Shown in pieces: positions 60,201 through 63,200 of a stretch of 64,000 nucleotides of DNA; the first letter of the stretch is position 1; every line of letters starts with the position of its first letter. Under the pieces are notes generated by a model, which ran no database searches, was not told the origin of the DNA, and was given only the letters and a program-made list of their open reading frames with translations. The stretch is from Mastigias papua. Lineage: Eukaryota > Cnidaria > Scyphozoa > Rhizostomeae > Mastigiidae. A program made the position numbers and the translations under genes. Where the stretch lies: the NCBI GenBank assembly GCA_964019165.1, contig OZ025287.1, positions 4,780,844 to 4,844,843 on the forward strand, given 5' to 3'.

Positions 60201-63200
60201 TGAGCCTCTGACCTTGGTCCTGGGTTCTTCTCTACATCATACTGTTGTTTCCATTTTATTTCCATTTCCTGTTGTTGTTTGTTATTGGTCTTGCAACCCA
60301 AGTTACTCGCCATACAGTATTCTATAGGGTCTGGGTGGTCGGCTACTCCACTTAGGCCCATTGGACAAAACGGTGTCTGGAAAAGCATTGTGTAGCAACA
60401 AAATAACCTTTCTTCTGTTTCCGTCTGTTTTGGTCTTCTTTTTGTCTAGATGAACCCTAGAAATGAATCATCTTGTCCACTTGTCTTCAAATATCTTCAA
60501 ATTACAGACCAATATCCCTCTTACCAATCTTTAGCAAAATTTATGAAAAGCTGATGCATAAAAGAATATATGCTTTTCTGAAAGACTGTAACATTTTGTA
60601 TCCTTTACAGTTCGGATTTCAAGAAAATAACTCAATTGACCATGCATTGATTAGTTTAACTGAAGAAATTAGGTCTTCCCTTGACAATAGGCGATACGGG
60701 TGTGGGATCTTTTTGGACCTCCAGAAGGCTTTTGACACTGTTGATCATGGTATTTTACTAAACAAATTAGAGCACTATGGTATTAGAGGAAATGTACTTG
60801 ATTGGTTTAAGTCCTATCTGTCGGAAAGAAGACAATTTGTTTCAATAAATGGCTGTAGCTCTAGTTTAATGACAACCACATGTGGAGTCCCACAGGGATC
60901 TGTACTTGGTCCACTTTTATTTCTTATTTATGTTAATGATTTGCCCAATGTTTCAAAAAAAATTAAAGTTTTATCTATTTGCAGATGATACAAACATCTA
61001 CTGTGAAGGTGATACTTTGACTAACCTTGCAAAAATAGTGAACAAAGAATTGAAATCTGTAAAAAGATGGTTAGATGTAAATAGGCTTTCCCTTAATATA
61101 AGCAAAACTAATTATATTATTTTCCATTCTACAACAATGAAAATCCCAGAAGACATTTCAATAAAGATTGGAAGAAAACATTTGACAAAAGCTAAATGTG
61201 TAAAATTTTTGGGACTTCTCTTAGATGAAAACCTTAGTTGGAAATTTCATTTATCTGAACTTTCAAAGAAGTTGGCTAGAACATGTGGGATCTTTTTTAA
61301 AATCAGAAGCCTTCTCCCTATCAACACATTGATTCTAGTTTATAATTCATTATTCTTACCATTCCTTCAATATGGTGTTATTGTCTGGGGTCAAACATTT
61401 ACTTCATATCTGGAACCACTAGTCCTAATACAAAAAAAGATAGTTAGAGCTATTGCACATCAGCGTCCTCTTTCCCATACTTTGCCTATCTTCAAGAGCC
61501 TCAAACTTTTACAGCTTTATGATATTTTTCGAATCAAACTACTATGCTTCGTATATGAATCAATTAATAAGCTAAATCCGTATTGCTTTCATGAATTTTT
61601 TCTGTTAAACTCAGATGTTCATGGATACTTTACTAGACAGTCTAATCGTGGTGACGTATTCCGCAATCACAAAAATAGTTTTCAATATGGTTTGAGATCC
61701 ATTCGGTATATGGGGGCAAAAACATGGAACGAACTCCCAGAAATACTGAAAAACTCTACTTCTAAATTGTCTTTCAAAAAAAATCTCAAAAAATTCATTC
61801 AAAACTCTATGTAAAATTGAATTATTTAGGACTAGGTACTCTTAAAATTTAGGTCCATTATTGAAGTATAAATTATAGTGCAGGGGGTACTCTCCTCAAG
61901 TTAGTTTACGAACTAGTAGGAGAGTTCCTCCTTAAGAATTCCCTATAATACAAAGTGCTTTTTTGATCGTTGAGTTTTTTTTTAATCTTTATGTAGTTGT
62001 TGTTGTACATTGTATATAGTGGGATTTAAAATGAATTGAATTGAATTGAACTTGGCACTAAACGTGGAAGTCGAAGACCATAGCCAAGCCATCATCATCA
62101 TCATCATCATCATCATCATCATCATTATCATCATTGTCATTGTCATCACCATCAATATCATCATCATCCTAGTTCTCTTATTTCTTCATTTTTTGTTCTT
62201 CTTTTGCACATGTCACTCCCTCTTTGTTCATCTACACATAACAAATCCTTGGTTTACCATGTTTAGCTATTCTTTATCTCTTTCTTTGCCATGACATGGT
62301 CTCAAAGTGTCAGTCAAGCGCAATTTTGTTGTTGATTCCAATATTATTCCACTATTTTAATTTTACAATCTTTTTGATGTTCATAAGAGCACATTTCCCT
62401 CTTGTTCGTTTGATTTAAATCTTGCTTCCTTGACATCCATGTTGGAAACATTCGAGTTTCTTCACCTGGTGTACCTAGCACTGGATCCCTTTCCTGGCCA
62501 TCGTAACACATTTCTGTAAAACTTCTCGTGTGCCAGCTACCAATTTCCTTGCCACGCAGCATTTCACCTTTTTCACCACAATGCCACATCATCTGCAAAT
62601 AAGACCTCTGTGAGCCTAAAAGTTTCTTGTTCTGTGCGCTTTTCTGCCTTTTTCGTTGATTGTGTTGATGGTAAATTTACTGGGCTTGAATTCAAATATC
62701 TAGCGACGTACAACCCTCTTTCTTTTGGTTCCTTTTTTTTGCCTACTGCTAGCTTCATTGCTGCCAGATTACACAATATAAAGTACAGAAGATGTAGGAT
62801 CACAATCACCCTTATCATCACCTTCATCATCACCTTTGTTATTATAGCGCTTCATGTCTTTTTGCAGATCACCTTCACACTTCTGCTTACTTGCTTCTAT
62901 CTAATACACGCTCCTTCCATTTATTGATGTTCTTTTCTGTCTCGTCTTTCTTTCGTTTTCTTTCCTGTGCTCTCGTTTCTCCTTTGGCTTTTTGATGAGG
63001 TATATTATTTCCTCCTGTGGTCCTATTCGTTCTGGCCAAGTGTCCTGTCATATCCTTCGGCTTGGTTTTGTTCCTTATTTCTGATGTTATACTATATTGC
63101 AATGCACAATAAGAGATAACTGTGAAGTTCGTTAATAGATGCAAAATTCCAGAAAGGCTTATTTGCCATAGTTAACTTAAGATCTTCATAACTAGATTAT

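What the first reader, a model, noticed from the sequence alone, without database searches (positions are those of the whole stretch)
60215..60388. LINE ORF opens with a 58-residue leader ending in a canonical 2A motif
DVEKNPGP fits the 2A consensus at every position and lies in frame between the first ATG and the AP endonuclease. The leader would be released co-translationally. In known LINEs the N-terminal 2A occurs in trypanosome L1Tc/Ingi and in some echinoderm and lancelet elements. Here it is combined with a C-terminal cluster of four zinc fingers and no RNase H, which I do not recall as a described combination.
Basis: partly seen in the sequence, partly recalled or inferred. Interest (0 to 1): 0.75.

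Follow-up and report, generated by a model that had tools for sequence, protein, structure and literature searches.

The report
LINE leader shed by 2A
This is a decayed copy of a still-young jumping gene, probably from a jellyfish or its kin, whose protein starts with a throw-away leader ending in a virus-like "2A" skip signal; in sister families that leader is partly the translation of a predicted self-cutting RNA at the element's very start, which could explain why a skip signal is kept.

Summary
The motif is real: DVEKNPGP, window 60238-60215 (- strand), in frame after an ATG at 60388. The window copy is dead (two frameshifts, stops, a 1.57-kb LINE inserted in its 5' end), but its family is young: eight of twelve copies examined have the same intact 1277-aa ORF, and 26 of 29 copies covering the site keep a canonical core. 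Three sister families and 111 of 148 unnamed relatives carry the motif at the same place (the other 37 start too late to show it); families F and G/H lack it. A C-terminal zinc-finger domain beside a 2A is already known from L1Tc; here RNase H is missing. New: (1) in six families the element starts at a GAT microsatellite (45 of 48 junctions) with a predicted HDV-like ribozyme; (2) in three, the first AUG lies 8 nt inside it, so a leader is translated from ribozyme sequence and parted from the enzyme by 2A (two) or a UGA/AUG overlap (one); (3) most relatives use a variant core, T(I/V)HPNPGP, with at least 10 E/H switches at position 14. Skipping and ribozyme activity are predicted, not tested.

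The parts
56489..62089 (-). whole LINE copy (family A): 5' junction at 62089, end of the (GAA)n tail near 56489; interrupted by another LINE at 60484-62049
62091..62123 (.). (ATC)n / (GAT)n microsatellite abutting the 5' end
56453..56488 (.). (GAT)n microsatellite abutting the 3' tail
62050..62089 (-). first half of the predicted HDV-like ribozyme (P1 GCTTGGC, P2 5' strand, P3, P1' GCCAAGT); holds an ATG at nt 9-11
   Evidence: (intact copy L040)
60484..62049 (+). another LINE fragment inserted into the ribozyme between P1' and J1.1/4, with CAAGT at both edges (62054-62050 and 60483-60479), read as the target-site duplication; boundaries +/- 5 nt
60431..60482 (-). second half of the predicted ribozyme (one copy of the duplication, J1.1/4 GGACA, P4, J4/2 GACAAAAA, P2' GAAGACCA)
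   Evidence: (fold of intact copy L040)
60239..60388 (-). leader codons 1-50, ATG at 60388
60215..60238 (-). 2A core DVEKNPGP (skip predicted between G57 and P58)
60107..60214 (-). Arg/Lys-rich linker, codons 59-94
59399..60106 (-). AP-like endonuclease domain (codons about 95-330, placed from the intact copy); in-frame TGA at 59636-59638 in this copy
57710..58454 (-). reverse transcriptase domain (placed from the intact copy; second frame of the broken copy, with an in-frame stop near 58197)
56554..56943 (-). C-terminal cluster of four zinc-finger-like units (third frame of the broken copy)

Best explanation
The element is a full-length but dead copy of a recently active APE-type LINE that inserts into (GAT)n microsatellites. 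Its RNA is expected to cut itself free at the exact 5' end by an HDV-like ribozyme. That structured 5' RNA carries the first AUGs, so ribosomes translate it or the region just behind it, and make a leader peptide. A 2A at the end of the leader makes the ribosome skip the Gly-Pro bond, releasing the leader and giving a free enzyme (linker, endonuclease, RT, zinc fingers) that begins with Pro. Shown by sequence: the 2A core and its conservation, the GAT junctions, the ribozyme-compatible fold in six families, the AUG inside the fold in families B and C, whose ORF starts there, and in F, whose leader ORF starts there and in most copies ends in UGA overlapping the enzyme's AUG. Inferred: ribozyme cleavage, 2A skipping, and that getting rid of the RNA-encoded peptide is why the 2A is kept.
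For: 2A canonical in 26 of 29 family copies covering the site; the three deviants are one substitution (DVEKIPGP), one stop at the site, and an old copy whose match holds three stops. It is kept in families A, B, C and D, ending at residues 58, 91, 93 and 68, although the families are 37-52% identical behind the 2A in the five pairs compared. Of 148 relatives held (16 proteins of other LINE kinds and the two closest left out), 111 have [NH]PGP before the endonuclease. Ribozyme: fold found at the junction in 6 of 6 families, each with C-A-A-A in J4/2; of 2000 shuffles each, 0, 0, 0, 0, 0 and 18 reach the observed score (A, B, C, D, F, G; 7, 11, 3, 1, 6 and 45 give any fold). In P1, 41 of 42 pairs are standard and 5 of 7 positions change on both sides (my count). 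GAT-rich 5' flank by one rule: A 22 of 23, B 3 of 3, C 6 of 7, D 2 of 3, F 7 of 7, G/H 5 of 5. Family F: 5 of 7 copies have a 66-codon leader ORF whose UGA overlaps the enzyme AUG; NPGP is absent from the ORF of the copy checked, L059. In relatives a leader block matches between two lineages best in shifted reading frames, 0 of 500 shuffles as good, as expected if RNA is conserved there. L1Tc, with a functional 2A and an active 5' HDV-like ribozyme, is a precedent.
Against: In the window's own family A the AUG inside the ribozyme opens only a 7-codon ORF; the enzyme ORF starts at nt +131, downstream of the fold, so its leader is not ribozyme code. In D the AUG is at +78, in the last ribozyme strand (positions). 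Family A's leader evolves like a protein (ratio 0.34), and within the family the 2A codons are not more constrained than their neighbours (ratio 0.42; 29 copies). Families G/H keep the fold without any NPGP and with a later start. The upstream context of the 2A (p11 = Y, N or T) fits none of the four upstream groups named in PMC12846837 section 10, where D12 sequences prefer G at p11. Rfam finds no HDV-family match above its gathering score; only family D has a weak one (23 bits against 44). My fold search was written after seeing the sequences; a stricter version missed family B, and strict folds occur at 254 of 75552 positions scanned.
Confidence: 0.6

Rival explanations
1. The 2A works, but to make two useful products: the leader peptide has its own role (an ORF1 substitute or targeting signal) and skipping sets the ratio of free to fused enzyme.
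For: Leader ratio 0.34 over 29 copies, about as constrained as the start of the endonuclease (0.36). Leaders of B and C share 31 of 78 aligned residues. Partial 2A cleavage is used for dual targeting in sea urchin NLR proteins (PMC4981915, abstract and passages; PMC12846837 section 14).
Against: Leaders differ in length (58-93 aa) and other pairs hardly align (11 of 44 aligned residues identical A-B, 12 of 60 B-D). In relatives the recognisable block matches between lineages in shifted frames. Family F has the leader as a separate ORF.
Confidence: 0.25
2. The enzyme starts at a methionine downstream of the motif (for example residue 95) and the leader with the NPGP motif is never translated; the motif is a relic.
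For: There is a Met at residue 95 just before the endonuclease; 37 of 148 relatives have predicted starts after the motif's place.
Against: The leader and 2A codons show ratios of 0.34 and 0.42 in family A, as coding sequence does. The motif is in frame and kept across families with 37-52% protein identity and in 111 relatives.
Confidence: 0.1
3. The 5' fold is not a ribozyme but another conserved 5' RNA structure (for example a protein-binding or promoter element).
For: No Rfam match above the gathering score; strict folds occur at 254 of 75552 positions scanned, mostly by chance.
Against: Six families each fold with P1, P2, P3, P4 in HDV order at the very junction, with P1 covariation and C-A-A-A in J4/2; five of the six beat all 2000 shuffles.
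Confidence: 0.15

Closest known systems
L1Tc / ingi clade LINEs of trypanosomes
   Same: N-terminal 2A (position recalled), AP endonuclease, RT, C-terminal C2H2 domain and a 5'-terminal HDV-like ribozyme (PMC4748587 and PMC4035085, a section and passages)
   Different: L1Tc also encodes RNase H and has two C2H2 fingers; the passages read place its ribozyme in the first 77 nt and mention no start codon inside it. Here RNase H is missing, there are four finger units, the target is (GAT)n, and in families B and C the ORF starts inside the fold
2A-bearing APE LINEs of animals (Odon et al. 2013; title seen in reference lists; clades Rex1, Crack, L2, L2A, CR1, Ingi recalled; paper not held)
   Same: single-ORF APE LINEs with an N-terminal 2A
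   Different: ribozyme, microsatellite target and the T(I/V)HPNPGP core: not seen in what I could read; the paper itself was not available
Vingi LINEs (Ingi sister clade without RNase H; definition recalled)
   Same: APE + RT without RNase H
   Different: no reference sequence was available, so kinship is untested
R2 LINEs with 5' HDV-like ribozymes
   Same: ribozyme at the exact element 5' end, insertion into a repeated target (start of the abstract of PMC3774820 in a search listing)
   Different: R2 has a restriction-like endonuclease (recalled) and targets 28S rDNA
Rare StopGo core variants in RNA viruses (PMC12846837)
   Same: T at p12 (88.5%) and H at p14 (>95%) are each active in rabbit reticulocyte lysate (sections 9 and 14)
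   Different: here T, S or G at p12 and H at p14 occur together, nearly always with P at p15, as the main form of a group of LINEs

Membership tests
2A / StopGo | core (D/G/C/N)(V/I)ExNPGP | tested here: met
   DVEKNPGP
2A / StopGo | supportive upstream context | tested here: inconclusive
   KWKQQY with p11 = Y fits none of the groups named in PMC12846837 section 10; section 14 says 28% of sequences stayed unclassified
2A / StopGo | peptide-bond skipping | not testable with these tools
   needs a translation assay
ingi/L1Tc clade | AP endonuclease and RT | tested here: met
   Pfam, (RT above its cut-off, endonuclease models just below theirs)
ingi/L1Tc clade | RNase H | tested here: not met
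   no RNase H hit in the intact 1277-aa protein
ingi/L1Tc clade | C-terminal C2H2 domain | tested here: met
ingi/L1Tc clade | RT phylogeny | not testable with these tools
   no reference ingi sequence held
Vingi clade | sister to Ingi in RT tree, no RNase H | tested here: inconclusive
   RNase H absent; no reference sequence for the tree
HDV-like ribozyme | P1-P2-P3-P4 nested pseudoknot with C in J4/2 | tested here: met
   6 of 6 families; descriptor written after inspection
HDV-like ribozyme | Rfam gathering score | tested here: not met
   best 23 bits against 44
HDV-like ribozyme | self-cleavage at 5' end of P1 | not testable with these tools
   position coincides with the GAT junction
target-specific LINE | insertion into one kind of repeat | tested here: met
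   45 of 48 5' junctions of six families have 5 or more GAT in the 40 nt upstream; the window has three arrays of 5 or more units, two of them flank this element

The most novel reading that the evidence does not exclude
In this LINE clade the 2A is a device for translating through a catalytic 5' RNA: the RNA self-cleaves to leave an 8-nt 5' end, translation starts inside the ribozyme, and skipping sheds the ribozyme-encoded peptide. The clade swaps devices for the same job (2A, UGA/AUG restart, late start) and has evolved a second class of 2A core, T/S-(I/V)-H-P-NPGP, interchanged at least ten times with the E form.
Probability: 0.45. Interest if true: 0.82.

Novelty: new variant of a known kind. 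Interest (0 to 1): 0.62.

Why it matters
It suggests a reason why LINEs keep a 2A at their N-terminus: the ORF begins inside, or just behind, a functional RNA and the peptide must be removed. That is directly testable in cell-free systems. If the T(I/V)HPNPGP core skips, it widens the known 2A code with a natural, abundant double variant. It also adds a candidate APE LINE lineage specific for a (GAT)n microsatellite; Kojima and Jurka 2015 (PMC4640811, passages) name the Tx1 and R1 clades as the APE-encoding groups among the majority of target-specific families, and I could not place this lineage relative to them.

Tried and rejected
Rfam for a known RNA at the 5' end: nothing above gathering in five loci. 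Search for the T-x-H core in the window's own genome: 0 matches, so that variant is known here only from unnamed relatives. Excess codon conservation in the leader between families B and C (19 of 30 same-residue codons identical against 236 of 588 elsewhere): suggestive only; of the other four pairs A-B goes the same way on 10 codons and the rest show little. A first selection count (19 copies) had picked copies by a near-exact match to the 2A DNA, so its 'no change in the 2A' was circular; one search repeats it on 29 copies without that filter and is the one used, and for that reason I raised the 'late start' rival from 0.08 to 0.10. Leader as signal peptide in family A: not supported by reading, not tested by a program. 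Clade naming by tree: no named references, so left open. Host: mitochondrial COX1 uses TGA as Trp and lies back to back with COX2, which from recall fits medusozoans (jellyfish and kin); an inference, not a match. Pattern count for D-I-E cores did not complete.

Full report
Observation. The minus strand of window 60388-60215 encodes a 58-residue leader ending in DVEKNPGP, from the first ATG, in frame with an AP-like endonuclease. The codon pattern has 116 matches in the 347-Mb genome and none when read backwards.

The window copy. Aligned to an intact copy it is 93-95% identical in protein but lies in three stretches in different frames, with in-frame stops. Its 5' end is at 62089, beside a (GAT)n array, and another LINE of about 1.57 kb sits in it between 60484 and 62049, flanked by CAAGT on both sides. 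The 3' tail (GAA)n runs into a second GAT array. The window holds three GAT arrays of five or more units, and two of them flank this element.

The family. A protein search of the own genome gave 152 matches, a lower bound. Of 30 loci fetched for the best matches, 29 cover the 2A site and 26 have a canonical core; the three others are DVEKIPGP, one with a stop at the site, and an old copy with several stops. Of 12 longer loci taken for this family, eight have an ORF of the same 1277 aa and are 97.0-99.3% identical in protein. Over 29 copies chosen without regard to the motif, the nonsynonymous/synonymous ratio is 0.34 in the leader, 0.42 in the 2A, 0.26 in the linker and 0.36 in the first 26 codons of the endonuclease. 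The leader therefore behaves as coding sequence; within the family the 2A is not specially constrained, so the case for it rests on conservation between families.

Sister families in the same genome. B (L051), C (L054) and D (L057) keep [16 protein letters not shown] and DIEKNPGP, ending at residues 91, 93 and 68. Behind the 2A, five family pairs compared are 37-52% identical. Families F (L059) and G/H (L060, L061) have no NPGP in their ORF.

Relatives. Two searches of a large protein set returned relatives with no organism names (103 listed; 120 of 153 listed). I held 148 after leaving out the two closest (P0015, P0016) and 16 proteins of other LINE kinds (P0102-P0117). Of the 148, 111 have [NH]PGP before the endonuclease; the 37 without it begin at most 57 residues before the endonuclease, inside it or after it, and one (P0146) has an odd start, so no full leader without the motif was seen. 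The core is usually TIHPNPGP (59), TVHPNPGP (12) or SVHPNPGP (9). On a quick tree of 129 proteins, six of them from this genome (110 with a state), position 14 changed between E and H at least 10 times and position 12 at least 7 times. H14 is followed by P in 82 of 83 cases, E14 by P in 9 of 27. Repeated interchange inside an otherwise fixed motif suggests that both forms work. T at p12 and H at p14 are each active in viral sequences (PMC12846837, sections 9, 10 and 14 read, the rest in abstract and passages); I saw no test of the double form in those sections. The tree is a quick one with long branches and uneven composition, so counts of changes are approximate. This variant was not found in the own genome.

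The 5' end. By one rule (five or more GAT in the 40 nt upstream) the junction is GAT-rich in A 22 of 23, B 3 of 3, C 6 of 7, D 2 of 3, F 7 of 7 and G/H 5 of 5 copies whose 5' end was found, 45 of 48 in all; in some copies a few nucleotides separate array and element, and one G/H locus (L069) lacks the 5' end. From that junction each of six families folds as an HDV-like ribozyme: P1 of 7 bp (6 in D), P2, P3, P4, and C-A-A-A in J4/2. Among 2000 dinucleotide shuffles each, the observed score was reached 0, 0, 0, 0, 0 and 18 times (A, B, C, D, F, G; 2 for H), and any fold 7, 11, 3, 1, 6 and 45 times (23 for H). P1 shows changes on both sides at 5 of 7 positions with 41 of 42 pairs standard (my count). 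Against it: the descriptor was written after inspection, a stricter version missed family B because of a bulge, strict folds occur at 254 of 75552 start positions scanned, one family A copy (L045) has lost the fold by a deletion, and Rfam gives only a weak match in D. The fold is a strong prediction, not a shown activity.

Start codons. In A, B, C and F an AUG lies at nt 9-11 of the fold. In B and C it opens the long ORF, so the first part of the leader is translated ribozyme. In F it opens a 66-codon ORF that in 5 of 7 copies ends in a UGA overlapping the AUG of the enzyme ORF; two copies have an earlier stop. In A it opens only a 7-codon ORF and the enzyme ORF starts at +131; in D the start is at +78, in the last strand of the fold. 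G/H start after the fold, without 2A, with short upstream ORFs in several copies. So the ways to keep the enzyme free of the 5' RNA's translation differ, and 2A is one of them. Support from relatives: a leader block found in 32 proteins (FWQQRG...SLK type) and one found in 10 (TEW...HLLKQ type) match best at the nucleotide level in shifted frames (best two offsets, both out of frame), 0 of 500 shuffles as good. The blocks were chosen by eye and regex, most of the 148 relatives fall in neither, and only proteins were available, so the DNA must confirm it.

What is known. L1Tc has a 2A, endonuclease, RT, RNase H, a C-terminal C2H2 chaperone domain and a 5' HDV-like ribozyme (PMC4748587: background section and passages; PMC4035085: passages). 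The present element is laid out like L1Tc without RNase H. It is not filed as ingi because RNase H is absent and no reference sequence could be placed. Odon et al. 2013 on 2A in animal LINEs is known to me from its title in reference lists and from recall; it, Heras 2006 and Rao 2025 were not held. In the listings of the ten paper searches I saw no report of a LINE ORF that begins inside its own ribozyme with a 2A to remove the product, nor of the T-x-H core; that library lacks most subscription papers and I read only a few of the listed papers.

Verdict. A real 2A, conserved between families of a young LINE clade.

Noticed in passing
L003 and L008 (own genome): A different LINE type has DVELNPGP in a coiled-coil, ORF1-like reading frame, after a hydrophobic N-terminal stretch, upstream of a separate endonuclease-like ORF (Pfam names no ORF1 family).
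   Followed up: partly
L004 and L007 (own genome): Further LINEs of another kind carry leucine-rich contexts ending in GDVELNPGP before an endonuclease-like frame (Pfam for L007), so several LINE lineages in this genome use 2A.
   Followed up: partly
P0081: A relative has GDVETNPGP followed by a PHD/C1-like finger before the endonuclease, which I did not see in the other relatives scanned.
   Followed up: no
L074 (5' flank) and L041 (3' flank): L074, a family D-like copy, is preceded by what reads as the 3' end and (GAA)n tail of a family A copy, and the array behind the family A copy in L041 ends in GGCTAGC, like a D start: elements seem to stack in one array.
   Followed up: partly
window 35190-39269: An uninterrupted 1359-aa gag-pol-like ORF of an LTR retrotransposon (by reading).
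   Followed up: no
L075 (contig C172): Mitochondrial COX1 and COX2 lie back to back and both frames begin with DIIDMNTY, TGA read as Trp; gene order suggests a medusozoan host (recall).
   Followed up: partly
contig C121: Several COX1-like genes of another type in one contig, possibly a bacterial associate.
   Followed up: no
L059 and copies L062-L064: Family F has NVTENPES just behind its enzyme AUG, where relatives have the 2A, perhaps a relic of a lost motif next to the UGA/AUG overlap.
   Followed up: partly
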